The notes under the pieces: generated by a model | What the model saw: only the letters and a program-made list of their open reading frames with translations | Database searches by the model: none | What the model was told of the DNA's origin: nothing | DNA from: Kovacikia minuta CCNUW1 | GTDB lineage: Bacteria > Cyanobacteriota > Cyanobacteriia > Leptolyngbyales > Leptolyngbyaceae | Length of the DNA: 58,514 nt | NCBI RefSeq assembly: GCF_020091585.1 | Contig: NZ_CP083584.1 | Location: forward strand, 1 to 58,514 | Reading direction: 5' to 3' | Shown here: positions 2,552-56,089 of the stretch, in pieces | Layout: each line of letters begins with the position of its first letter | How positions within the stretch are numbered: the stretch's first letter is position 1 | Program-made: the position numbers and the translations under genes

Positions 2552-2749
2552 ATGCATGAAACCCTAGTGGCAACTAACAAAAGCCGGATTGTCAGCTACG
2601 TCGATCCTGAAATCAAAGAGAAGCTTGAGAGATTGGCTGAGGTGCGTCTAAGAAGCCTCAGTAACCTTATTGAAGCGGCATTAGTTGACGAAGTTGCTAG
2701 AGCAGAAGCGAGCGGGGAATTGCCCAAGAAGACGGGTCAAAAGAATTAG
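2552..2749 (+). CDS. Ribbon-helix-helix DNA-binding protein
   Basis: A 65-aa protein with the RHH (CopG/Arc) layout: a short beta strand (SRIVSYVDPE), helix A (IKEKLERLAEVR), a turn, and helix B (SLSNLIEAALVDEV). RHH proteins bind DNA as dimers through the paired strands, commonly as plasmid copy-number regulators or antitoxins. A clear ribosome site (AAAGGAG) precedes the ATG. No toxin gene follows directly. The next gene is a second, different RHH protein 90 bp on with the same upstream motif. It is probably a plasmid regulator acting on its own promoter. Confidence 0.8.
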   Translation: MHETLVATNKSRIVSYVDPEIKEKLERLAEVRLRSLSNLIEAALVDEVARAEASGELPKKTGQKN

Positions 2750-2792: not shown

Positions 2793-2839
2793 TTTGAGAT
2801 CTGGGTATAAGATCACGACATCAGATCTGAGAGGTGAGC

Positions 2840-2995
2840 ATGAAGCGGATTGTTTTGAGCGTCCCTGATGATTTTTATGAGGCTTTGCAAAACTTGGCAG
2901 ACCAAGAAACTCGGTCAGTTCCGAACTTAGTTCTCTGGTTGACTGCTAAAGCTTTGAGGGAAGGACAAGAACAATCAGTTAGAAAAGCTAGTTAG
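2840..2995 (+). CDS. Small ribbon-helix-helix protein
   Basis: A 51-aa protein (MKRIVLSVPDDFYEALQNLA...) with the RHH pattern: strand KRIVLSVPDD, helix A DFYEALQNLADQET, helix B VPNLVLWLTAKALREG. A ribosome site (GAGGTGA) lies just ahead of the ATG. It is distinct in sequence from the RHH protein at 2552 but shares the same upstream motif, so the two may compete for or share an operator. It is the first gene of a tight run of very small genes up to 3512. Confidence 0.75.
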   Translation: MKRIVLSVPDDFYEALQNLADQETRSVPNLVLWLTAKALREGQEQSVRKAS

Positions 2996-5171: not shown

Positions 5172-6446
5172 ATGATTCCTTCCTCCCCACTCTTCCCTCA
5201 CCGTTATGACTACCTTTGGGCAGAGCATCCAAATCCTGGCGAACGCCCGGAATGGAAGACCGAGAGCCGCCATCCCCTCTCAGATCGCCTGATCCAGCAG
5301 GGGGCTTACCTCTATGGTGTCCGCTTCGGTCAAATGACCCAGTACTGCATGCTCGACATCGACTACGGCAGTTCTTACCATCCCGTTCGCGATCGCTTCG
5401 CCTGGAGACGCATTAAAGCCGCACTCGAACCGTTGGGGCTGGTTCAGGGTGTCGTTTGCTCATCCAGCTACAGCAAGGGGTTACACCTCTACTTCCCCTT
5501 TACAGAAGCTCATAAGACATGGGCGATCGCCCTGGCGGTAACAACCTTGCTGGAAAATGCTGGCTTCAAACTGGCACCGGGGCAACTGGAGGTCTTCCCC
5601 AACTGCAAGCCCTACTCAGGGAATAGTGAAATCAGCCTCTATCAGGGCCATCGGCTTCCCATGCAAGCGGGCTCCTACCTGCTCAATGAGGAGTTACAAC
5701 CCGTTTGGGCAGACCAAGCTGCCTTTGTCCAGTACTGGCAGTTTGCCCAGAACCGGAACTGTGTCCATGAGAAGGGGATGGAGCGCATTCTCAAGCAAGC
5801 CCGTCGCCGCAAGTTTCGGACCAGCACCAAGGCAGAGAAGTACCTGAATGACCTCAATGCCGAGATTGAACAGGGTTGGACAGGACCAGGGCAAACCAAT
5901 CGCTTACTCGGTCGGATTGCGATGCGTTCTTATGTGTTTGGGCATATCCTCCACACCGATACTCCACTAGAAGGAGAAGCCCTGGTGGCAGATATCGTCG
6001 CAACCGCTCAGGCTCTCCCCGGTTATCAACAGTGGTGTCGGCACCAGCATGAGCTAGAGGAGAAGGCACGCCAATGGGCCCGCTGTGTGGAGAGTAGCCA
6101 TTACTTTCACTATGGCATTGGCAAGCCCAAGGAAGTAGACGAGATCACTCCTCAGAATCCAGTGGAGCAGAGTTGGAACCAGCAACAGAGCCTGGCAGCC
6201 AGAGAGCGGATTCGACAGGCACTAGCAGACTTATTGGAGCAAGGCACCCTCCCATCTGGAATCAAAGAGCGCACCCAAGCCTTAGTCAGCTATGGCATTA
6301 GTGGCGCTACCCTTTATAAGCACCGGGATCTGTGGCATCCCAATCATTTGCAAGCATTATCCAGCGGCGAACCCCCAAGAGGGTCTGGGGCAGGACTGCC
6401 TGGTAACGGCGACCTGCCCCGAGAGCCCCCCAAACTTATTGGGTGA
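5172..6446 (+). CDS. AEP-type primase / plasmid replication protein
   Basis: A 424-aa protein whose N-terminal half carries features of archaeo-eukaryotic primases: the metal-binding hDhD motif (MLDIDYGSSYH, about residues 60-70), a following S-S-Y-S-K-G-L-H-L-Y-F segment (about 97-107) that fits the sxH motif, and a downstream EVFPN strand. The C-terminal half is helical and charged. AEP primases of this size are frequent replication initiators or primases of plasmids and integrative elements, making RNA or DNA primers. It stands alone before the restriction operon. The C-terminal 30 residues are proline/glycine-rich and look like read-out after a frameshift; see the next entry. Confidence 0.7.
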   Translation: MIPSSPLFPHRYDYLWAEHPNPGERPEWKTESRHPLSDRLIQQGAYLYGVRFGQMTQYCMLDIDYGSSYHPVRDRFAWRRIKAALEPLGLVQGVVCSSSYSKGLHLYFPFTEAHKTWAIALAVTTLLENAGFKLAPGQLEVFPNCKPYSGNSEISLYQGHRLPMQAGSYLLNEELQPVWADQAAFVQYWQFAQNRNCVHEKGMERILKQARRRKFRTSTKAEKYLNDLNAEIEQGWTGPGQTNRLLGRIAMRSYVFGHILHTDTPLEGEALVADIVATAQALPGYQQWCRHQHELEEKARQWARCVESSHYFHYGIGKPKEVDEITPQNPVEQSWNQQQSLAARERIRQALADLLEQGTLPSGIKERTQALVSYGISGATLYKHRDLWHPNHLQALSSGEPPRGSGAGLPGNGDLPREPPKLIG

Positions 6447-16337: not shown

Positions 16338-17258
16338 TCAAATCTCAGTCGTTAGCTTATCTAATTCATCCAGTAGTTTGGTAATACGATCGCGCTTCTT
16401 GCGATCTCCCCAAGCTTCATCCTTCTGCAACCGCTTGCCGATTTCATTGAGACGTTGAGCTACTATCTTGCCAGGTTTTGGTTCTGCTTCAGGTTTCAGT
16501 TCCTGGATTTTAATCTTGATTTCATTGAGGGACAAATTTTTAGAAACGGCTTGCTTCAACAGCTTAGACCGCTGTTCCTCGTCTTTAAGTTGTGCGATCG
16601 CCCTCGCCTTAGTGAATTCAATCTTGCCTTGTCTTAGTGCTTCCAGCACATTGTCCGGCAGATTAAGTAGAGGAAGACGATTGACCCGGAAGGATTCTGC
16701 ACTAAATCGACCAACTGTAGAAAGCAGAGATTCAATCACTTCAAGTTGACGGATAACGTTATCCGTCAAATCCTGTCCTCGTTTTTTGGCGTTAGCCGCC
16801 TGGTTCAGGACCGATACAACTTCTTCAGTGGAAGCATCTAAGTCAATCGCCAACAGTTGTAAAACTCCCTCAGTTTCCTCCACCGGGTTCAAATCATCCC
16901 GCTGGAGGTTCTCGATTAATGCAACTTGAAGTGCCTGTCGGTCATCAAACTCCCGAATGACAACTGGAATCTCTTTTAATCCAACTTCCTGGGCAGCCCG
17001 GTAACGTCTTTCTCCGGCAACCAATTCATAATTGGCTCCTAATGGGCGAACTAAAAGAGGCTCTAGAATGCCATGCTCCTTAACTGACTGAGAGAGCTGG
17101 GCAAGTTTTTCTGGATCAAAGTAGCGCCGGGGCTGATGTTTAGGCAGCAAGATTTTGCTGATAGGGACGGTGCTGGTTGATTGATCCCCTTCAACTTCCA
17201 TGCTAAATAAATCGGTCACTCCCCGCATTTTGGGGACTTGAGGACGCTTAATAGGCAC
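16338..17258 (-). CDS. parB: ParB-type partition protein
   Basis: A 306-aa ParB. The N-terminal ParB/Srx domain shows ISKILLPKHQPRRYFDPE, then ELVAGERRYRAAQEVG (the GERRxRA box that binds CTP in this family, about residue 82) and ALIENLQRDDLNPVEE. The HTH region after about residue 115 is unusual and shorter in obvious motif than in chromosomal ParB; the C-terminal half is a charged coil ending in a likely dimerisation segment. It overlaps parA by one base in an operon, parA first. ParB binds parS centromere sites and stimulates ParA. No classical parS was found; candidate sites are discussed elsewhere. Confidence 0.9.
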   Translation of the reverse strand: MPIKRPQVPKMRGVTDLFSMEVEGDQSTSTVPISKILLPKHQPRRYFDPEKLAQLSQSVKEHGILEPLLVRPLGANYELVAGERRYRAAQEVGLKEIPVVIREFDDRQALQVALIENLQRDDLNPVEETEGVLQLLAIDLDASTEEVVSVLNQAANAKKRGQDLTDNVIRQLEVIESLLSTVGRFSAESFRVNRLPLLNLPDNVLEALRQGKIEFTKARAIAQLKDEEQRSKLLKQAVSKNLSLNEIKIKIQELKPEAEPKPGKIVAQRLNEIGKRLQKDEAWGDRKKRDRITKLLDELDKLTTEI

Positions 17259-18010
17259 TATAAATCCTCCATCCCTTTCGCAATTTCATCTAGGATCGCC
17301 ACTGATGGATGCTTCGGCATGTAGACTGCTAAGGGCTGACGAGCCATAGCAGCATCCGCAAACGCCGTCGCTCGGGGAATCGGTGAATAAATAGTGGTCA
17401 TTGGAGACAGTTGTTCTCGGATCGCCTCTAAAATTGCCTTATCTTGGCTGGCATTATTAAAGATCGTAGGGACAATGCCGGCGATCGCCAGCCTGCGGTT
17501 CAAGTGCTTTCTCACTTTTTTAATCGTATCTAATAGAAGCTCAGTGCCCTTGAATGCCTTAAAGTGCGTCTGAATTGGGATTAAGACGTGGGTAGCCGCT
17601 GTTAGAGAGAGGATACTTAGAACCCCTAAACTTGGCGGGCAATCAATCAAGATGAAGTCGTAATTTGAGGTCTCTGACTCCAAAGCTTCCTTTAGCCGCA
17701 ATTCTCTCGCCATGATAGATGCAAGTTGGATCTCCGCTGCACTTAGGGTAATGTTGGCGGGCGCAAGACTCATCTGATGCAGGTCATGCTGGATAGGTAG
17801 CGTCGCTTCTTCTTCCAAAATCGCGTTAGCAACGGTCTGCTCCAACTCATGAGGTTCTAGTCCCATAAAAGTAGTCAGCGATGCCTGAGGGTCCGCATCT
17901 ACGAGAAGGACTCGATGACCGCGCAGAGCCAGATGGTAGCCCAAGTTCATTGCCAGCGTTGTTTTACAGACACCACCTGCTTGGTTAAAAATAGCGATGA
18001 CTTTATGCAC
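17258..18010 (-). CDS. parA: ParA-type partition ATPase
   Basis: A 250-aa Walker-type ATPase that moves plasmids together with ParB. The deviant Walker A reads NQAGGVCKTTLAMN: the signature lysine-poor first half and Cys where most ParA proteins have Gly (GGVGKTT). The essential KTT is kept. Switch motifs VDADPQAS (Walker A') and DCPPSLG (Walker B) are normal. It lacks an N-terminal HTH, as in small type Ib-like ParA proteins. It is the first gene of parAB and its stop shares a base with the parB start. The variant P-loop position is also found as Ala in cyanobacterial relatives as I recall, so it is likely functional. Confidence 0.92.
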   Translation of the reverse strand: MHKVIAIFNQAGGVCKTTLAMNLGYHLALRGHRVLLVDADPQASLTTFMGLEPHELEQTVANAILEEEATLPIQHDLHQMSLAPANITLSAAEIQLASIMARELRLKEALESETSNYDFILIDCPPSLGVLSILSLTAATHVLIPIQTHFKAFKGTELLLDTIKKVRKHLNRRLAIAGIVPTIFNNASQDKAILEAIREQLSPMTTIYSPIPRATAFADAAMARQPLAVYMPKHPSVAILDEIAKGMEDL

Positions 18011-19028: not shown

Positions 19029-19375
19029 CCTTCACATCTTAATGTTCATTGTCTCCTTCTTACATCTAGCCTGTCTAAACTCTCCAGGATCGACTGTTGC
19101 CCTTCTCAAAAATGGCGATTAAATTTACAGTCTCAAAGTTCGGCAGTTAAGACTGTCTCAGAAACGTCGGATATCGAGACATTAAAGTACGGAATTGTGC
19201 ACGAACAGCAGAATCAGACGTTGAGTCTCTCAAAACTCATCTCACAATCAAAGTTTCAAAACTGCTTTATTCTCACGCGTTTTGAGACAGTTTCTAAATC
19301 TTCTGCGTATATCTCTCTACGCCAGCTCCTTGCTCAACGCCTATAGTTGAAATGCTTTGCAGAAGGGAAGAAGGG
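19029..19375. other. Gap upstream of nucA with transposon-like ends
   Basis: No gene is seen. Two oppositely facing blocks share ACTGTCTCA(G/A)AA: one at about 19152-19167 (GACTGTCTCAGAAACG), the other at about 19280-19297 on the minus strand (ACTGTCTCAAAACGCG). The second continues AATAAAGCAG, resembling Tn3-family terminal repeats. They may be remnants of a Tn3-type end or MITE. Promoters for nucA (plus) and the Rpn gene (minus) must also lie here. Confidence 0.35.
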
Positions 19376-20248
19376 ATGCAGGGATTCATGAACAGGCTGT
19401 TATGGAAAGGTAGAAGATTCTGCAATAGTCTGCTAGGCGGAATGGTTATTGCACTGACGATCTTCTTTGGAGTCGTCGCGCTTGCAGATCTCAACTATGG
19501 CAGTGTTCATCTAATTATGGGCAACCCTAGCCAGGCAACTGCCACCAGTACAAACTCCAGTAATTACTTGATGCTTAAGCCTGAGTACGCACTTTCCTAT
19601 AACCGGGAACGAAACATTCCTAATTGGGTTAGCTGGCAACTGAACGCTGCCTGGTTAGGTGATGCTCCTCGGCAAGATAACTTCCGCCCAGATCTTACCC
19701 TCCCCTCCGGCTGGTATCGAGTTACTCCAGCTAACTACACTAATAGTGGTTTTGATCGGGGGCACTTGATGTCATCAGAGGATAGAGGAGTGAGCGTTGC
19801 GGCCAATTCAGCCACCTTCTTAATGACAAATATTATTCCGCAAGCGCCTGACAATAACCGGGGACCGTGGGTGCAATTCGAGACCTACTGTCGAGAACTA
19901 GTGAAAGACGGGAAAGAACTCTATATCATTGCTGGAGGTGCTGGCTTTGGTGGCACGGGTGAAAAAGGTCTACTAGAGACTTTAACCAATAGCAAAGTAA
20001 CTGTGCCTGCTTCAACCTGGAAAGTGGTGTTGGTTTTAGATAAGCCAGGATTGAGACTCCAGGGAGTCACCGAAAAAACACGCGCGATCGCAGTTGTGAT
20101 TCCAAATAAGCAGGGTATCCGACATCAAGAGTGGCGATCGTTTAGAGCCTCAGTTGATTCAGTTGAGGCTTTAACCGGATACGACTTTTTCTCCAACGTA
20201 CCCCAACCCGTTCAGTCTGTGATAGAAGCTGGTCTAGACAACCTATAG
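19376..20248 (+). CDS. nucA: Secreted DNA/RNA non-specific endonuclease NucA
   Basis: A beta-beta-alpha-metal nuclease close in pattern to Anabaena NucA. Visible landmarks are NYLMLKPEYALSYNRERNIPN, WQLNAAWLG, RQDNFRPDLTLPSGW, the catalytic DRGH box (FDRGHLMSSEDRG), the metal/active-site helix (NIIPQAPDNNRGPWVQFE, then TYCREL) and the end motif LTGYDFFSNV. It degrades DNA and RNA without sequence preference. An N-terminal basic stretch and hydrophobic helix (LLGGMVIALTIFFGVVALA) export or anchor it. I favour the ATG at 19376 with a purine-rich ribosome site; an ATG at 19352 is possible. Its inhibitor gene nuiA faces it 9 bp downstream. Confidence 0.93.
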   Translation: MQGFMNRLLWKGRRFCNSLLGGMVIALTIFFGVVALADLNYGSVHLIMGNPSQATATSTNSSNYLMLKPEYALSYNRERNIPNWVSWQLNAAWLGDAPRQDNFRPDLTLPSGWYRVTPANYTNSGFDRGHLMSSEDRGVSVAANSATFLMTNIIPQAPDNNRGPWVQFETYCRELVKDGKELYIIAGGAGFGGTGEKGLLETLTNSKVTVPASTWKVVLVLDKPGLRLQGVTEKTRAIAVVIPNKQGIRHQEWRSFRASVDSVEALTGYDFFSNVPQPVQSVIEAGLDNL

Positions 20249-39768: not shown

Positions 39769-42700
39769 TCATGACAGCAACCCTTCAATCACCCCTATAG
39801 ACGTGGTATCAAGGGTTACGAACATACCGATCGCGCCCACAGCGAAACCTGCGATGCCATCGATGGCAGCAACCAGAAGCGCTGCCTCCTCACCGAAAAG
39901 TTTAAGAGGATTGACCATACCCGGGAATATTCCAATTAGGGCAGCCGCGAAGGAAGCGTCGGAATTTGGATCAAATGAGCCATCGTTGATAAATGTGTAG
40001 ATCGTCGCCGCAAGCGCGACCACGCTCATCAGTGACAAAATGAAAGACAGCATATAGCTATCGTCTGCACTGAGATTAACGACAGGTAGTCCAAACACAC
40101 CGATTAATAAACCCGCTATGCCGATCCCATAGGCAATCCAATCATCCGTACTGGGTGGGTCACTGGGGTCAGTATAGGTGACTTCTGGACCAGTAATAGC
40201 TGCGATCACCATCCCCAGTGCTGTTTGGATATAAGACACAGGTGCTGGCGGGCTTTCTTCACCGAAGGCGTCTGCAAAAGCATTGATCATCCCCGCGATG
40301 ACCGCAGCCATCCCAGCACTGACCCCAAGTACACGCCGAGCGAAAGGTGGGAGAGGAGGGTTGATCCCAACCTGCACCGCAGTCATAGATGCCTTCTCAA
40401 ATCCCTGAGAGGGATACTCGCCTTCCACCACGCGGTAGATGATGGTGACGGGAATCGCTGCCACCAGTGTGACCAGGTTGAGGATCGTCAGATGTTCGCC
40501 GGTGATTTCGTGATATAGCCAACTGAGGACGGGGATATCGATTTCGCTCGTGATCGCACTCATGACGGTGTCAATCACATCGTTGATGATTTCCATAAAC
40601 CCGTCTACAAATGCCTGAGCAACATCCATTGCGGCAAGCACGAGCGTCTCGATCATGTCGAGTAGGGTGATGAGCAGGTTATCAAAGAAGGTGGACACTG
40701 AGCAGGATGAAAAGGTATTAGTGAAATCCGTTTTGAGTTGTGCGAAAGCGCTGCTCAAATCTCCGTCTGAGAGGCGTTGAATGAAAGTATTGATGAAATC
40801 ACTAACGGAGCTATCTGCGACTTGCATGGTGGATGGCGACAGGTTTGTCCCTGGCAAGCCATGTTTCATCTTTTGCAAGCTCCAACTGCAATGCACAGAA
40901 CGAGAACTGCCGCTGCTGTTAGGACCGACTGAGCCAGGTCCAGCCTTGAAAGTTGTGTGAGATGTTGCACCGCTTCCCGGCAATTGCTTTGTGCCCTGGT
41001 TCGGGTTGAGCTTACTTCTAAGCTGGTTGAAGACTTGTTGAATCTCCGTTGTGCTCTGACCGAAGAAGCTGTCGATATTCGGGATCACGTTCTGTTGAAT
41101 GAGTGTCTTCAGGGCAGATACTTGCGTTGTCACTTGCCCCGCTAACCATTTTTGCGTCCACATGATTTCGCCAAAGTGGAACAGAACGCTGAGGGCTTCA
41201 ATGATGTCTTTAATTAGCTTGGCGAGTGCGACAAAGAAGCTGGCGATCGCATGGGCAATGTCTTCAACCACTTTGATGATTGCTTTAAAGACTTTCTTAA
41301 TGTCGTTCCAGACGTATTGCAACCCTACATAAACGTCTTCGGCAATGCTGACAATCACCTGCTTAATTTCTGCCACAACTTTCGTGAGCCAGTTCCAAAA
41401 GTCGGTGAAAATGTTGCCGACGCGGCGACCCTCAAAGGGCAGTCCTCCGTCAGTCGGCGACCAGGGCAGACCTTCTAACTGATCGATCGCCGTGCGGGCA
41501 TCGGCATGATTAATTTCAGTGTGACTGAAGGGGTTGCTGTTGGGGTCGTAGGGCTGACTGGGATCAGCAACCGCCAATTTCAACCCAGTCGCTTGATTGA
41601 TCTGGACGGGGCGAGTGGCGATCGCATTATTGGGCGCATAGTGCATTCCAGTGAGATCTTCATAGGGCACATAGGGCGTGTTGGGGTCAGCCGATTGCAG
41701 TGCCGACAGCACCCTTCCCAGTTGCACCTGAGTCGAGCCACCGGGGTCTACCCCCTGCCGCATTTGCTGTGTGGCTTTTGCTATCTGCTGCGGTTGTCCG
41801 GCAGTCTTTTCATCGTCGGTAAACAACGAGGTGCCGCTGTAGTTAACCACGGAAGACAGGTCAGGATGATCAGGGTCAGTATAGGAGGCATCTGAGGTGC
41901 TGCTAGAGGCGTAGCTGTTGGAGACGCGCCCGTGAAACTCATGGTCGGGGAAGATCAGAATCCGCTCGAAGGAGTTCATGAAGGGTGCCCACACGCGCAG
42001 TATTGAGGTGTTGACGTTGCCAGCAGTGCTAACAATCACCAGCGTGCCGTCCACCCCCGTTTTGACCGAGGCATAGTCACTGTCACTCGGACCGATCGTG
42101 TAGGGCTGATCGTTAATGATGACCTGCGTGTTAGGCTGATCTGCCCAGATCTTGACGGCTTCATGGGGACGAGGTGCCTTCAAGTCATCGACGATCGTCA
42201 GGTGAGTTTGGTAACGAGCCACCGAATGCAGGATGGAATTGTTAAGATCAGTTGCTGGCTTATCCGGGTCTTGCATCAACTGCGATTCGATAATGAAGTC
42301 GCGTAAGCCTTGGACCAGTTCATCAACCCGGATGCCAAACACTTGGTTAGACTCAGATGTTGACATATAGTCAACACTATTACCACCGGCATAAATCACG
42401 CCATTGCTGAGACTGGTTGAGAGCGCCTGAATTTGGGTGCAGCCTGTAGGCAGGCTTCCCTGTGTATCCTTATCTGGAACATAAGCAAAGAGAGAGTTCC
42501 AATCAAAATCTGCACTGGGGCTGCTGATGCCGAAGATGACGATCGGCTTCGTCACTGCGCTGCCGAGGTTTTCCGGATCGGGCACAGTGGTTCTATAGAT
42601 AAAGGGCGTTGATGAAATGTAAGCCTCGCTATCATCACCCCCGGCGGAATGCTGGTGAACCGGTAGGAACTCGTTATTCAATCCCCAAAGTTTGCCATTA

Positions 42701-47039: not shown

Positions 47040-48810
47040 ACCCAGTCTGTTGCAATAGGCTGAGAACAGGGGTGCCTATTGCCATTTAGTGAAAATGGTA
47101 CTTTGCGCTCAGGCAAACTGAGGTTTTTTGCATAACCCCTCGAAAAGGTATATTCCAGAATGAGGCACTTGAATCTTATTCGAGCGGCAACTGCATTAAC
47201 TGTTGAGGAATCGCTTGCATATCAATGAGTTCAGGCTGCCTATTGAACTCATAGCGTCCATAGAAATTGATATGCTGCCAGGCAACTGGTGACACTTGGC
47301 TGAGGTTGCTCCCCCGACCCAGGTCACTAATGCTACCCCGGTGAGTCAGTAGGTCAGACAAGATAAAGGCGTTGTAATAGATATTTTACCCCTAGAAGGC
47401 GTACAGCCCAGGGAACAGACGGACAGGCACCAGGGCAGGGAGACAGGAGACGGACAGAGACACGTCCAGCGAACAGAGGGAAGAGGCCCACATGATGGGG
47501 GATACCGGGGATGGTCTAGGAAGGGGCCGTATGACTGGGAATGCCCTCCGTTTGCATAGCCCCAGTGATTGTAGACGGACGGCGGTATAGGGAAGAGAGA
47601 CCGTCCACCAAGCCCCCAACCAGGACAGCGAGAGGAAGAGATCCCACTGCATGAGGATGGCAGGGAGGGCAAGTATTAGGAGGGGCAGACCGTGAACAAG
47701 CCGCTACGTTCACGCGGTGTGTACGCAGCACGTATCGCAGCTTAGGGTAAAGTACACGGCTGAAACCCTTACTCTATGGGCATTGTGCAATGTTCTCGTT
47801 ACCCTAAACGAGCTGTCATTCAGCGGTGAGCGGACTGGGACTACCCACCGACAGTCCACAACCCACAGCCCACAACCACAACAGAGAGAGGAAGAGAGTC
47901 CCACCGTTTGGGGGAAACTGTGGAAGTCGTGATGAGAGAGATGATCGTGCATTCAGTGACCGTACCGCTCCCAAAACTCCTACTGCATGGGCAGTGTGGA
48001 ATGTTCTCGTTACCCTAAACACACTGCGATTACAGGGGCAATCCCAAGACAGACCACCCACCCAAGCAGCCCACACAACCAAAGCAGCTAGCAGCGCGCA
48101 GAGAGTACCCACCCACCGGGCTGGATAAGGGAGCGTATCTCTGGGCATCCCTGGGCATCGGTGCAGTTCTTGGGGCAGCTCAGGGAGCGGGCACAGAGCG
48201 TCAGGGCTTGTCCTTCCCCTCCCTCCAGTGGGCTGCATCCAGATGGGTCACTTCCCTGGTCTTGGGGGATTGTGGTCGGTCCTCTTCGGGTGGGGTCGGT
48301 CATCCCCAGAGCTATCCAGACAGAGCGGAGCAACCCATCTCATGACAGCCCCTCGGATTGTGGTGGATCAGTCTTCGCAGTCCGTTCGGGTAGTGGGTGG
48401 CTGATTCAAGGGCTCAGCCCCGTTCATGCGGCATGTTCCCCCAAAGTAGGCGTATCCCATCTCCGGTGGTGGATCGGTCTTGTATTGCCGTTCGCTTACG
48501 ATCGCTGGGCCATCTGCAAGTGGGAGGGCATCCCCAATCATGCAGTCGGTTCACAGACTATCTCAACCATCCCCAACCTGGTGGGCCTTCTCCATCTGTC
48601 TGTCCGTGCCTCGTTCCCTTTCCGTCTATTCATGTCCCTCTCCGTCTGTCCGTGCTTCGTTCCCCCTCCGTCTGTTCATGCCTTTGGCGTGTTCTCTTCC
48701 CTCTCCCTGTGCGTGTTCTCCTTCTAGCTGTGGGTGTTCTCTTCCCCCCAACCTCCGCCTAAACTAATGGCAGTGGGATTGTGCCCTCTACTCCTTGAAG
48801 CCCACTCACC
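47040..48810. other. Repeat-rich stretch without convincing genes
   Basis: All open frames here are Pro/Ser/Arg/Cys-rich and lack ribosome sites, so I regard them as non-coding. Two 36-bp direct repeats (47774-47809, 47985-48020; 32 of 36 identical) share AATGTTCTCGTTACCCTAAA. A diverged inverted repeat pairs about 47539-47612 with 48466-48533 (TGCCCTCC...CAGTGATTGTA against its complement). Purine-rich GACGGACAG tracts on the left face CTGTCCGTC tracts on the right. A structured RNA, replication origin or decayed element are all possible. Confidence 0.45.
47774..48020. repeat. Pair of 36-bp direct repeats, 211 bp apart
   Basis: The copies at 47774-47809 and 47985-48020 differ at four positions and share AATGTTCTCGTTACCCTAAA. 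Flanks are partly similar too, suggesting a diverged tandem unit of about 211 bp. The sequence TTAGGGTAA, the complement of part of the repeat, lies at about 47741 and could pair with it. Confidence 0.6.
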
Positions 48811-49590
48811 ATGACCGAATCCCCTCTCCCTGCCACTGCCTCAACCTCTCTGCCCATCCAACTGTTGTGGGACTGGCTAGACTCCCTCGAACAGATGCCC
48901 TTAAGTGCCGATAGAGGGGCAATTGGGCAGGCCATTGCGCACCTGGAATCTGCCATTGGAGATCGCCCTTTGAGTGTACAGATGGGCATCGTAGCGGATG
49001 TATTGTTGCGCCTCAGTGAGCTGGTCTTGCAACGGGCAGAGGAGAGCTTAACGGCCTGGGAACAGAAGCATCGACCAACCGATGTCCTATTGAGTGCCGA
49101 TGACCTGGCGGGCTTGATTATTAGCTCCACTGAGGTTGATGTGAGTGAGTTCCTGATTGAGGCACCCCCTATTCCCCGTTGGCGGTCTCCCTTAAGGGTA
49201 AAAGAAGGGGAGGGGGAAACAGAGGCGTTCTATGAGATGGATGAGGAGAAAGCGGCCTTCCTCAAGGAGCTACCGCCCCCTGAACCCCTGCGGGATGAGG
49301 AGATAGAGCGGCAATTGAAGGCACTGGCTTACGATGAGGATATCTCAGGTTGGAGTGCCACTGTGGGTCAGTACTTGCAACATCGATGGGCGAGCTTGAG
49401 TCGCAGGCAAGGAGTATCAAAAGCGGTGGATAAGGGCGGGATTCCCCTGCTGGAGCTGCCCGCTGCGGTGGGGCTGCCCCTTTCTAAGGTGTGGCTGTCG
49501 TTGCTGTTGGGAGAGGGAGGGGGAAGGCTGGTGCAGGCGTCAGAGGACTTCTATGATGCGGCGGGGGTGAGGATCTTCGCTGCCCCTTAG
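48811..49590 (+). CDS. Unknown plasmid protein
   Basis: A 259-aa acidic protein. The N-terminal half is helical (IQLLWDWLDSLEQMPLSADRGAIGQAIAHLE), the middle has a Glu/Pro-rich linker (KELPPPEPLRDEEIERQLK), and the C-terminal part may form a winged helix (IPLLELPAAVGLPLSKVWLSLLL). It lies directly before the palindrome and iteron cluster at 49.6-50.0 kb. A role in replication control is conceivable from position alone. The family is not recognised. Confidence 0.55.
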   Translation: MTESPLPATASTSLPIQLLWDWLDSLEQMPLSADRGAIGQAIAHLESAIGDRPLSVQMGIVADVLLRLSELVLQRAEESLTAWEQKHRPTDVLLSADDLAGLIISSTEVDVSEFLIEAPPIPRWRSPLRVKEGEGETEAFYEMDEEKAAFLKELPPPEPLRDEEIERQLKALAYDEDISGWSATVGQYLQHRWASLSRRQGVSKAVDKGGIPLLELPAAVGLPLSKVWLSLLLGEGGGRLVQASEDFYDAAGVRIFAAP

Positions 49591-49616: not shown

Positions 49617-49840
49617 TTGAATCGATTCAAGATCAAGGTGGGATAAAGAGACCTCGTTTTGAATCGATTCAAATCAATTCTTCCGACCAGATACGTCAGC
49701 TATGACCGACTGCACTGAACCCCATTTGGTTAGAGCGTTATTCAGCTAGCTTATTGAATGAATTGAGTCAATTGCTCCAGCTTATCGATGAATTGAATCG
49801 TTTCGGTTCGTCCCTAAAGTGTGGTTTTGAATCGATTCAA
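49617..49840. repeat. Three copies of a perfect 14-bp palindrome
   Basis: TTGAATCGATTCAA occurs at 49617-49630, 49659-49672 and 49827-49840, each preceded by TT. A partial copy (TTGAATCG) lies near 49794 and another at the window's last bases. The first two are 42 bp apart, four helical turns. They could be centromere (parS-like) sites for ParB or operator sites near the origin. Confidence 0.75.
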
Positions 49841-49861
49841 AAACCCATTGCCTGTCCAATG

Positions 49862-50020
49862 AGTTACGGCAGAGTTACGGCAAGGTTACGTCAAATCTGC
49901 CGTAAAACTTCGGCAAAATTACCGCAAAACTGCCGTAACAGGGCTAGCGAGACGAGGTTTGGGGTCAATTGCGGCAGATCTACGGCAAAGTTGCGGCAAG
50001 GTTGCGGTAAGACTGCCGTG
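49862..50020. repeat. 11-bp iteron array, candidate replication origin
   Basis: About a dozen copies of TTACGGCAAG or variants (TTGCGGCAAG, TTACGTCAAA), on both strands, spaced 11 bp in two blocks: 49864, 49875, 49886, 49898, 49909, 49919, 49931, then 49969, 49980, 49991, 50002, 50014. One copy per helical turn is the usual arrangement for Rep-binding iterons. The HU gene ends just right of it. An 11-bp period rules out coding as the cause. Confidence 0.75.
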
Positions 50021-50076
50021 TTTGTTTCCTTACTTCTAGCTGAGTCAAACGAGCCAAACGAACTCGACTCAAGCCC

Positions 50077-50403
50077 CTACTTCGACTTTCCTTTCGACTT
50101 AGCTGCTGGAGCCTGCTCCTCTAAAGCAGGAGGTGCCACCTTCTCTTTGAAGAGCTTCCCGGCTGAGAAAGCCGGAACCTTCGTGGCTGGGATTTGAATC
50201 GTTGCCCCCGTTGAGGGATTGCGTCCTTCCCGAGCTGAGCGATCACGCACTTCAAACGTGCCAAAACCGACCAGGGTTACCTTTTCACCTTCTGCCACGG
50301 TGTCTAGAATCGTGTCCAGAAGCGCTGTCAGAACCGTGTCTGCATCCTTCTTGGTGCAATCTGCTTTGGCTGCGATCGCGTCAATTAACTCGCCCTTATT
50401 CAT
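50077..50403 (-). CDS. HU-family DNA-binding protein
   Basis: From the ATG at 50403 (MNKGELIDAIAAKADCTKKD) this gives 108 residues. The fold is complete: helical N-terminus, VTLVGFGTFEVRDRSAREGRNPSTG (about 44-68) and the DNA-arm region with IQIPATKVPAFSAGKLFKE. A Lys/Ala-rich tail of about 18 residues (EEQAPAAKSKGKSK) is longer than in standard HU. The frame is open to 50469 but an AGGTAG site before 50403 marks the start. HU bends DNA and often helps plasmid origins open. Its location next to the iteron array fits that role. Confidence 0.9.
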   Translation of the reverse strand: MNKGELIDAIAAKADCTKKDADTVLTALLDTILDTVAEGEKVTLVGFGTFEVRDRSAREGRNPSTGATIQIPATKVPAFSAGKLFKEKVAPPALEEQAPAAKSKGKSK

Positions 50404-50795: not shown

Positions 50796-51974
50796 TTATC
50801 GCCGCCGCTTGCGCTGGGAGTCCTGCCCCTCATACGTCTGAGCAATCAACAGCAGGATTCGGTCTCGGTCTCTCCTGACCTTCTCCAAATCACGCAGCTG
50901 GAAGTTTGAGGTCAGAGTCGGCACACCCCCCTGGTCATGCACCAAACGCTTGCCATCCCGGGTGTCAATCTTGGTAAATCCCCGCCGGCGGCTCAGGATA
51001 TACGTTTGCCCTTTCCAATAGTTGCTCTGCGCCAGATTAAGAACCATGTTCGCTGTCGTGATTAACTCCTGAGCGATCGCCTGCTTTTGTTGGTCACTGA
51101 GCGTCTTCAGGTCGGTTTGAGCGCTCAGATACTGCCGCTCTAGCTGCTCCACTTTGTCTGCCAATCGATGGGAGGTTAGACGGCTCTCCCGTTCCTTTCT
51201 AAGGGCAAACTCCTCGTTCTTGGCGTGGGCAACCACGGTGGAGATGGCATCCTGAACCTGAGAGGCGCGTTGGGCTAAGAACTCACTGGCTCGCTGGTGG
51301 TAGTCCTGCACCGATTCCTGCGCCAGGGGCAAAGGCAGTACGAACTCCCGCTCCAGGTCGGGCACCTCAACTTCTCGTTTAATCCGACCGTAGAAGTCTT
51401 GAATGTGCTCATGCTGGGCGATCGTCCCTTTGATGCCCCGCTGCAAGCCCAACGGTTCCATCGCCTCGGCAATCTTGTCCTGCCACTCTTGGAGCTTCTC
51501 CCGGCCCCCAAACCAGTTCTCCCAACTGAGCCAGCCCTTCTCTGGATGAATGGGCACGACATGGGCATGGATGTGGGGAGTGGTCTCATCCAGATGCAGG
51601 ACAGCTGAGAGACAATACGCCCCAAAGGACTGCTGCAAGAACTCGGTGGCCCGGCTGCTAAACACCTCTACCTTCTCAGCGTTGATCGCTCCGGTGGGGT
51701 GATTATCGTGACGAAACCAGGCGGGACTGGCACTCAGAAGGACTTCGCAGACCAGATTCGCATCCGGTCTTGTCTTGCGCTGGGTCGTAGCGGCATTGAG
51801 CATCACTTCCACATGCTCCCATAGGGTCTCGGCACACCCAATCAGCTGACGGTTGCAGGGTGTCTCAGTGGGGTCCGCGTTCCGGGTTTCCTGGCTGCGC
51901 ATACAGTGGTCGCGGGAGGCTTTGACCTGGGCGGGGGATTTCAGTTTGCCGAAGCGGAGGATGGAGTAGGCCAT
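50796..51974 (-). CDS. MobV-type relaxase (Mob/Pre family)
   Basis: From the ATG at 51974 (MAYSILRFGKLKSP) it encodes 392 residues. The Mob/Pre pattern is clear: RFGKLKSPAQVKASRDHCMR near the start (the family's H-x-x-R start block) and the metal-binding histidine box VLHLDETTPHIHAHVVPI, with the H-D-E...H-x-H triad, at about residues 115-130. The C-terminal half is a long charged coil. Relaxases nick oriT and lead transfer or recombination of the plasmid. Codons upstream of 51974 are open but lie across a divergent promoter region. A second, unrelated relaxase lies at 53657. Confidence 0.85.
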   Translation of the reverse strand: MAYSILRFGKLKSPAQVKASRDHCMRSQETRNADPTETPCNRQLIGCAETLWEHVEVMLNAATTQRKTRPDANLVCEVLLSASPAWFRHDNHPTGAINAEKVEVFSSRATEFLQQSFGAYCLSAVLHLDETTPHIHAHVVPIHPEKGWLSWENWFGGREKLQEWQDKIAEAMEPLGLQRGIKGTIAQHEHIQDFYGRIKREVEVPDLEREFVLPLPLAQESVQDYHQRASEFLAQRASQVQDAISTVVAHAKNEEFALRKERESRLTSHRLADKVEQLERQYLSAQTDLKTLSDQQKQAIAQELITTANMVLNLAQSNYWKGQTYILSRRRGFTKIDTRDGKRLVHDQGGVPTLTSNFQLRDLEKVRRDRDRILLLIAQTYEGQDSQRKRRR

Positions 51975-52440: not shown

Positions 52441-52654
52441 AAAGTGTATCGAAAATAACTTTTCTGCTCAGAATTCTGAACAGAATTATCCCCAGACTTC
52501 TGCCCAAACTTCTGCCCGTAATTCTGAGCATCATCATCCCCGAAACTCTGCCCATAAATCTGTCCACACTTCTGTCCCTAATTCTGAGCGGAATGAACCG
52601 CTACAAGTCAGAATTCAGCTTTCTGGAAGCTATAAAGTTTGTCGAAAATAACTT
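52441..52654. repeat. 12-bp tandem array framed by 21-bp direct repeats
   Basis: Eleven 12-bp units (52467-52598) follow the loose consensus CCCAAACTTCTG (for example CCCAGACTTCTG, CCCGTAATTCTG, TCCACACTTCTG). They are framed by two 21-bp near-identical repeats ending TCGAAAATAACTT at 52441-52461 and 52634-52654. Position between the two mobilization clusters suggests a second origin, an oriT accessory region or a regulator array. A four-residue repeat peptide could be read through it but looks non-protein-like. Confidence 0.65.
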
Positions 52655-55708: not shown

Positions 55709-56059
55709 ATGACAAAACCGAAAACACCAAAGGCTAATCAACCGCCCTTCCAGAAACCCGATCATGAGGCTGCATCCGCTGCACTCAAATTGATGGCTGA
55801 GACGCCAAGAAATATCCCGCCTGAAGAGTTAGTGCAAAAGGATTATGATGTCCTCTCTAAGTGTTTGAGGAGAGGTTATAACTACACCAACATAGCGAAC
55901 ACCTATGGTGACAACGGTATTAAAGTGACAGCTGCGAAACTGAAGCTAGAGTTCGAGAAACAACGCGACCAGAAGCAGCAGGAGCAGGAACAGCAGGAAA
56001 CACCCTCAGAAGTGCCGACCAGCTCATCGGCTGCATCTAAGCTGGTGAAGCGCTCGTAA
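55709..56059 (+). CDS. Small plasmid protein, possible mobilization helper
   Basis: From the ATG at 55709 (MTKPKTPKANQPPF) it encodes 116 residues. A helical core (ALKLMAETPRNIPPEELVQK) is followed by an HTH-like unit (VLSKCLRRGYNYTNIANTYGDNGIKV) and a long Gln/Glu coil tail. It reads away from mobC, the usual position of a second relaxosome protein such as TraK- or MobB-like helpers. No specific family is recognised. The frame extends upstream without a better start. Confidence 0.6.
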   Translation: MTKPKTPKANQPPFQKPDHEAASAALKLMAETPRNIPPEELVQKDYDVLSKCLRRGYNYTNIANTYGDNGIKVTAAKLKLEFEKQRDQKQQEQEQQETPSEVPTSSSAASKLVKRS

Positions 56060-56089
56060 TGGCTCTAATGGCTCTAATGGCTCTAATGA
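56059..56089. repeat. Three tandem copies of ATGGCTCTA
   Basis: The 9-bp unit ATGGCTCTA repeats three times plus ATG immediately after the stop of the preceding gene. It is likely slippage; a downstream frame starting here is Met-Ala-Leu repeats and is not considered a gene. Confidence 0.6.

What the first reader, a model, noticed from the sequence alone, without database searches (positions are those of the whole stretch)
49617..50020. Candidate plasmid origin: 14-bp palindromes plus 11-bp iterons next to HU
Three perfect TTGAATCGATTCAA palindromes precede about twelve 11-bp iterons spaced by one helical turn, next to an HU gene. This is the classic look of an origin with an adjoining centromere or operator. 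The AEP primase 45 kb away might be the initiator.
Basis: partly seen in the sequence, partly recalled or inferred. Interest (0 to 1): 0.62.

Follow-up and report, generated by a model that had tools for sequence, protein, structure and literature searches.

The report
Plasmid maintenance site with switched iterons
A cyanobacterial plasmid and the large replicon living beside it carry the same kind of DNA control site, with identical palindromes but differently spelled 11-base repeats, which looks like a site that lets each replicon be kept and inherited without confusing it with the other.

Summary
The window is a whole 58.5-kb contig (C3) of an 8.56-Mb, three-contig genome. Between two convergent genes lie three perfect TTGAATCGATTCAA palindromes and twelve 11-bp iterons in two blocks (7+5). 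The 14-mer occurs eight times in the genome, all in these two modules. Although the copies are old (mobV dS about 1.2), palindromes are identical (42/42) while other intergenic DNA is 57-61% identical. The iterons keep their 11-bp frame, but their 3-bp core differs: TAC-GGC-AAAAC on C3, TAC-CAG-AAAAC on C2. Convergent genes make a promoter operator unlikely. ParB is probably not the palindrome binder: its likely parS is a 24-bp palindrome inside parB. Best reading: a replicon-specific maintenance site, somewhat more likely a centromere/incompatibility array for a ribbon-helix-helix protein than the origin; both stay open. HU showed no general link to such arrays. The 259-aa neighbour is probably a divergent ScpA-like kleisin. 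No protein-DNA contact was shown.

The parts
48811..49590 (+). 259-aa protein, probably a divergent ScpA-like kleisin; converges on the site
   Evidence: No Pfam match at E 0.1 and no NCBIfam match at E 1; hhalign of 26 relatives against 17 cyanobacterial ScpA P 1.5e-5, probability 79.4, control against ParB P 0.19; AlphaFold2 model (pLDDT 74.6, pTM 0.38) with a C-terminal winged helix; structural second look led by condensin chains, Z 8.3
49617..49630 (.). Palindrome P1 TTGAATCGATTCAA
   Evidence: identical in C2
49659..49672 (.). Palindrome P2, 42 bp after P1
   Evidence: same 42-bp step in C2
49748..49812 (.). Block partly conserved with C2 (two GCTTAT, TGAGTCAATT), with two weak palindrome-like sites
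   Evidence: alignment; sites with 3 mismatches at 49758 and 49793 (where shuffles of the whole window give about 3 matches of that grade)
49827..49840 (.). Palindrome P3, 168 bp after P2
   Evidence: a 169-bp step exists in C2
49865..49941 (.). Iteron block 1: seven 11-bp units (five direct, two inverted), core TACGGCA
49970..50024 (.). Iteron block 2: five 11-bp units (three direct, two inverted)
50077..50403 (-). HU-family DNA-binding protein (108 aa)
   Evidence: PF00216, E 2.5e-33; paralogue beside the C2 array
50796..51974 (-). MobV relaxase, part of the module shared with C2
   Evidence: PF01076, E 7.2e-34; C2 copy 81% identical
2552..2749 (+). 65-aa ribbon-helix-helix protein, candidate iteron binder (inferred)
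   Evidence: RHH_1 21.7 bits against a cut-off of 20.5
2834..2995 (+). 53-aa ribbon-helix-helix protein, second candidate (inferred)
   Evidence: RHH_5 44.9 bits against a cut-off of 26
5172..6446 (+).
   Evidence: LigD_Prim-Pol E 0.045, below cut-off; 60% identical to a C2 protein and to a Leptolyngbya plasmid protein
16746..16769 (.). 24-bp palindrome inside parB, likely parS of the plasmid's ParAB system
16338..18010 (-). parB (16338-17258) and parA (17258-18010)

Best explanation
The region is a cis-acting replicon-maintenance site shared in design by the plasmid C3 and the 1.2-Mb replicon C2 of the same cell. Shown: identical palindromes at near-whole-turn spacings; 11-bp iterons whose frame is kept while the 3-bp core differs between the replicons; position between convergent genes. 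Inferred: the iterons are the replicon-specific part, bound cooperatively along one face of the DNA by a small dimeric ribbon-helix-helix protein, as a centromere/incompatibility site that separates sister copies of one replicon and does not pair with the other. The palindromes, alike on both replicons, are bound by a second protein common to both, unknown here.
For: Same module on C2, in pieces of 76.6-85.1% identical DNA, with iteron and palindrome blocks in the same order. Palindromes 42/42 and 4-bp 5' flanks 12/12 identical as aligned (one search shows a one-base gap beside the third), against 137/223 and 50/88 in the other intergenic positions. TACGGCA-type sites: 12 in C3, 0 in C2; TACCAGA-type: 14 in C2 (13 in the array), 0 in C3. 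Direct and inverted units share one register within each C3 block, as expected of a pseudo-symmetric dimer. It is the most regular short-period array seen in C3 outside frames that look coding. On C2 a ParM-like actin and a 110-aa protein that I read as RHH lie 2.7 kb from the array, with no other periodic array near them at the thresholds used. In Oscillatoria pOSCIL6304.02 an 11-bp array (8 units by my reading) abuts a gene with a weak RHH match, E 0.012. Passages of PMC9426499: ParR proteins are typically RHH proteins, R1 ParR needs at least two 11-bp repeats, and ParR-parC specificity decides incompatibility.
Against: C3 has no match to the C2 ParM, and its ParA/ParB have a likely parS elsewhere, so a second centromere has no obvious motor. 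The RHH genes of C3 are about 11 kb away round the circle, and the one searched has no good C2 homologue (31%, E 0.14). parC usually lies upstream of parM (PMC9426499), and three irregular TTCTGCCCA-like motifs do lie upstream of the C2 parM, so its parC may be there. The C2 110-aa protein has no Pfam hit at E 0.1. Iterons as such align no better than other intergenic DNA between replicons (70/128). C3 holds other repeats, among them a CT-rich imperfect one at 48598-48746. No binding data exist.
Confidence: 0.4

Rival explanations
1. It is the replication origin of C3 (and an origin on C2). The iterons bind a replicon-specific initiator, most likely the AEP primase, the AT-rich palindrome part melts, and HU assists.
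For: Palindrome part 41% GC against 50% for the window; the most regular non-coding iteron array seen on C3; no tblastn match at E 0.01 on C3 to CyRepA1 (no positive control in that set) or to the large pSYSX protein that I took as CyRepX1, primase present; the primase is shared with C2 at 60% identity.
Against: No initiator gene recognised nearby on either replicon (C3 primase about 13.7 kb away round the circle; C2 primase at 335 kb, array at 1,109 kb). Repeats within 1 kb upstream of the primase: strong in Leptolyngbya NIES-3755, none in C3 or L. boryana, two weak three-copy words in C2. No site within one mismatch of the four DnaA-box 9-mers tried. No clear GC-skew signal.
Confidence: 0.33
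2. Composite site: the conserved palindromes and AT-rich block are the origin or the site of a shared protein, and the iterons are a separate replicon-specific copy-control or partition element.
For: The two motif classes evolve differently: palindromes frozen, iteron core switched.
Against: No protein assigned to either part.
Confidence: 0.16
3. Orphan or regulatory array: a remnant of a mobilisation element (mobV module) or a transcription-factor site, without role in maintenance.
For: The C2 259-aa gene is frameshifted; the same 14-mer is found three times in a GC-rich viral contig, so this palindrome also arises elsewhere.
Against: Convergent flanking genes; perfect palindromes and regular iterons kept while neighbouring DNA diverged.
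Confidence: 0.11

Closest known systems
parC of ParMRC (type II) partition, e.g. plasmid R1
   Same: 11-bp repeats (R1 unit, passage in PMC9426499); ten repeats flanking a promoter in R1 (title in that paper's reference list), here 7 + 5 units in two blocks; specificity can differ between coresident relatives
   Different: Not next to parM; no ParM match on C3; inverted units mixed in; palindromes attached; lies between convergent genes
Iteron-type plasmid origin (P1, F, RK2; recalled)
   Same: Iteron array beside AT-rich DNA on a plasmid
   Different: 11-bp mixed-orientation units instead of direct 17-22 bp units (recalled sizes); no adjacent rep gene recognised
F plasmid sopC centromere (recalled)
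   Same: Short palindromes at about 42-43 bp steps (C2: 42, 42)
   Different: Only 3-5 palindromes; the plasmid's ParB has another likely site
Repeats upstream of the primase in Leptolyngbya sp. NIES-3755 plasmid3
   Same: Cyanobacterial plasmid with a 60% identical primase and a set of repeat motifs
   Different: TGATTACA and GTTCTAGA motifs upstream of the primase gene; a different arrangement

Membership tests
ParMRC parC | Array of repeats with 10-20 bp units | tested here: met
   12 units of 11 bp, 4 of them inverted
ParMRC parC | parM actin gene on the same replicon, next to the array | tested here: not met
   C3: no match to the C2 ParM; met only loosely on C2 (2.7 kb away)
ParMRC parC | RHH ParR binds the repeats | not testable with these tools
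   RHH genes exist on C3; binding unknown
Iteron origin | Initiator gene adjacent to the iterons | tested here: not met
   Flanking genes are a kleisin-like gene and HU
Iteron origin | AT-rich region beside the iterons | tested here: met
   41% GC against 50%; melting not tested
Iteron origin | Fragment supports autonomous replication | not testable with these tools
   needs a cell assay
ParABS parS | Palindrome recognised by the plasmid's ParB | tested here: inconclusive
   Indirect: a conserved AACGTT palindrome inside parB is the better candidate; no binding tested
SMC_ScpA (259-aa neighbour) | Match to Pfam PF02616 | tested here: not met
   0 of 26 family members match PF02616 at E 1; the chromosomal ScpA does match
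SMC_ScpA (259-aa neighbour) | Profile similarity to ScpA | tested here: met
   P 1.5e-5, probability 79.4; control P 0.19
SMC_ScpA (259-aa neighbour) | Kleisin fold | tested here: inconclusive
   Foldseek best E 0.82; second look led by condensin chains at Z 8.3 but rmsd 22.4, C-terminal winged helix matches many families

The most novel reading that the evidence does not exclude
The module is a plasmid-borne condensation-and-segregation cassette: a kleisin related to ScpA, HU and a two-part centromere travel together with a MobV relaxase. The palindromes recruit a shared (perhaps SMC-kleisin) machinery, and the 3-bp iteron core acts as a replicon identity code that was switched when two copies came to share one cell.
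Probability: 0.1. Interest if true: 0.75.

Novelty: new variant of a known kind. Interest (0 to 1): 0.42.

Why it matters
Two coresident replicons with the same site design but a 3-bp difference in the iteron core are a natural experiment on how maintenance sites avoid cross-talk. The fragment is short and testable. In cyanobacteria information on plasmid replication proteins is limited (so says the abstract of PMC10899382, seen).

Tried and rejected
ParB as palindrome binder: set aside after the parB-internal palindromes were found. The 16 parB genes were not a random draw: ten came from the best of 2,123 plasmid records, three from plasmids fetched for their primase-like gene or its neighbourhood (L106, L109, L163), one from L107, and two are C3 and C2.

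Second C3 array at 52462-52586 (12 bp): first taken as more iterons. Twelve bp is four codons, three of the six frames are open across it, and the same repeat lies near mobV fragments in a same-family genome (L102), so I read it as a coding repeat; the amino-acid reading was made by eye and the L102 stretch is not open in any frame over its whole 431 bases. Other C3 repeats seen and not pursued: a CT-rich imperfect repeat at 48598-48746 (26 and 21 bp) and a 9-bp repeat at 56052-56088.

259-aa gene as the marker of the site: 24 of 58 genomes, own included, have matches, but 0 of 28 relatives' loci showed a periodic array at the threshold used within about 1.5 kb. MobV relatives: 0 of 6 loci (4 genomes) hold the palindrome, and none was flagged at lag 11, though one (L101) has a 22-bp periodic stretch about 8 kb from mobV. 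The 18-mer CGTTTTGAATCGATTCAA in genome contigs: 10 stretches, one copy each, in non-cyanobacterial records, about what chance gives (my estimate about 7). Plasmid collection: the 259-aa gene in 1 record at 25%; DNA of the whole module only as HU-gene matches in 4 records. Viral contigs: one contig with three copies of the palindrome in another context, taken as coincidence or an unrelated operator; a mobV search there found no relative.

GC skew of C3 and of 24 sampled C2 stretches: no clear origin. Foldseek alone: best E 0.82; in the structural second look other families are not excluded. The HU dN/dS failed through a frame error of mine and is not used; ungapped HU nucleotide identity over 324 bases is 0.80. 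Paper searches, listings only unless passages are named in the report: cyanobacterial iterons/partition 6 papers; 11-bp repeats/ParR/parC 56, 12 listed; cyanobacterial replication initiators 32, 10 listed; iterons with RHH 5; CyRepA 8 listed; parS in cyanobacterial plasmids 12, 8 listed; kleisin + plasmid + ScpA + cyanobacteri 1; TTGAATCGATTCAA 0; TGAATCGATTCA 3, unrelated by their listing.

Full report
Setting. The window is the complete contig C3 (58,514 bp) of a genome of 8,564,336 bases in three contigs. C2 has 1,207,795 bases and C1 7,298,027. Open frames run across the joined contig ends, consistent with a circle. C3 carries ParA, ParB, a MobV relaxase, a second relaxase and a NikA-like protein, so plasmid is the natural reading. 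The plasmid hits listed for the primase, the C2 ParM and the 259-aa protein are cyanobacterial, so I take the host to be a cyanobacterium.

The site. Between the stop of the 259-aa gene (49590) and the stop of HU (50077) lie three perfect 14-bp palindromes and twelve 11-bp iterons. Neither flanking gene starts here, so an operator for these genes is unlikely. Palindrome steps are 42 and 168 bp. Four of the twelve iterons are inverted but share the register of their block. Eleven is not a multiple of three, so this is not a coding repeat.

The second copy. C2 carries the same order of parts, at about 1,106.3-1,110.0 kb: mobV, HU, iterons, five palindromes, 259-aa gene (frameshifted). Palindrome steps there are 31, 169, 42 and 42 bp (2.95, 16.1, 4.0 and 4.0 turns). 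The exact 14-mer is found nowhere else in the genome; my estimate for chance is about 0.03 sites. mobV dN is 0.12 and dS 1.19, so the copies are old. Against that background palindromes (42/42) and 4-bp 5' flanks (12/12, one beside a one-base gap) are identical; other intergenic positions are 137/223 before the iterons and 50/88 after their start, and iteron DNA is 70/128. Yet each array keeps its own consensus: 12 TACGGCA-type sites on C3 with no TACCAGA-type site, and 13 TACCAGA-type sites in the C2 array (14 in the scanned stretch; 2 of the 13 inverted) with no TACGGCA-type site. Written in frame, typical units are TAC-GGC-AAAAC and TAC-CAG-AAAAC. I read this as a specificity switch with a kept binding geometry.

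Who binds. ParB: in 9 of 16 parB genes a perfect palindrome of 22-34 bp with an AACGTT centre lies inside the gene, at codon 167-174 in eight of them and in the C2 gene at a place whose codon number is approximate. Four more have an imperfect version at the same place (6 or 7 of 8 arm positions). Of the remaining three, two have no perfect palindrome over 8 bp, and pSYSG has a different 26-bp palindrome. In C3 it is TTGACGGATAACGTTATCCGTCAA (16746-16769). That is the better parS candidate. RHH proteins: two small RHH genes lie at 2552-2995. On C2 a ParM-like actin (ALP_N) and a 110-aa protein, read by me as RHH without a Pfam hit, lie 2.7 kb from the array; no other periodic array was seen near them at the thresholds used, but three irregular TTCTGCCCA-like motifs lie upstream of parM. 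In Oscillatoria pOSCIL6304.02 an 11-bp array lies just upstream of a gene whose product has a weak RHH match (E 0.012, below cut-off). Primase: 60% identical between C2 and C3. Relatives sit on 64 plasmid records, one of them a 13-kb plasmid with seven annotated genes: this protein, ParA, ParB, one hypothetical and three transposition genes, so it may be an initiator. But only 1 of 4 upstream regions examined has a strong repeat set (Leptolyngbya NIES-3755), and C3 has none.

Choice. An origin and a centromere are both compatible with the anatomy. For the centromere: unit size, mixed orientation in one register, two blocks, replicon-specific core, ParM nearby on C2. For the origin: AT-rich palindrome part, the most regular non-coding array on C3, and ParAB already has a likely parS. 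I put the centromere/incompatibility reading at 0.40, the origin at 0.33, a composite at 0.16.

The 259-aa gene. Pfam (E 0.1) and NCBIfam (E 1) do not recognise it; at E 1 in Pfam it has one chance-like match, and none of 26 family members matches PF02616. A profile of 26 relatives aligns to 17 cyanobacterial ScpA proteins with P 1.5e-5 and probability 79.4; the control against ParB gives P 0.19. The model (mean pLDDT 74.6, pTM 0.38) has an N-terminal helical part and a C-terminal winged helix. The structural second look is led by two yeast condensin chains, which I take to be the kleisin Brn1 (Z 8.3, rmsd 22.4 over 149 residues), with a cohesin chain and the ScpA C-terminus (Z 6.1) among many winged helices; the tool warns that Z near 8 can mean only a common arrangement, and Foldseek itself found nothing better than E 0.82. 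So it is a probable distant kleisin on the profile evidence, not a Pfam member. It is common in relatives away from such arrays (24 of 58 genomes; 0 of 28 relatives' loci with an array; no HU or mobV match in 30 of 30 loci).

Literature seen: passages of PMC9426499, PMC9978351 and PMC10899382; the others only as search listings. R1 parC details beyond the passages, F sopC, P1 and RK2 are recalled.

Limits. No binding, replication or stability data. One genome holds both copies; no other genome with the module was found in the searches made, each of which covers only its collection. C2 was read only in part.

Noticed in passing
window 16746-16769; loci L065, L091-L094, L096, L107, L067: Plasmid parB genes of this family carry a long AACGTT-centred palindrome (22-34 bp) inside the gene at nearly the same codon: probable parS embedded in parB (9 of 16 perfect; 4 more imperfect).
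   Followed up: partly
window 48811-49590; L014-L041: Divergent ScpA-like kleisin family without Pfam entry, sometimes several copies per genome, also on plasmids.
   Followed up: partly
window 52462-52586; L102 1419-1720: 12-bp repeat (TTCTGCCCA type) upstream of mobV, shared with a same-family genome; probably an in-frame four-residue coding repeat.
   Followed up: partly
L066 about 40680-40770: Oscillatoria plasmid pOSCIL6304.02: 11-bp repeat array directly upstream of a gene for a protein with a weak RHH match.
   Followed up: no
L109 about 19180-19930: Leptolyngbya NIES-3755 plasmid3: eleven TGATTACA and six GTTCTAGA motifs, counting both strands, within 1 kb upstream of the primase gene, a candidate origin.
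   Followed up: no
L166 380-636: GC-rich viral contig with three TTGAATCGATTCAA palindromes upstream of genes that I read as terminase genes.
   Followed up: partly
L042 8514-12764 and L005 9140-13395: 4.3-kb segmental duplication within C2 (92% identical) that includes part of the 259-aa gene and leaves out the array.
   Followed up: no
window 48598-48746: CT-rich imperfect tandem repeats (26 and 21 bp periods) just before the 259-aa gene.
   Followed up: no
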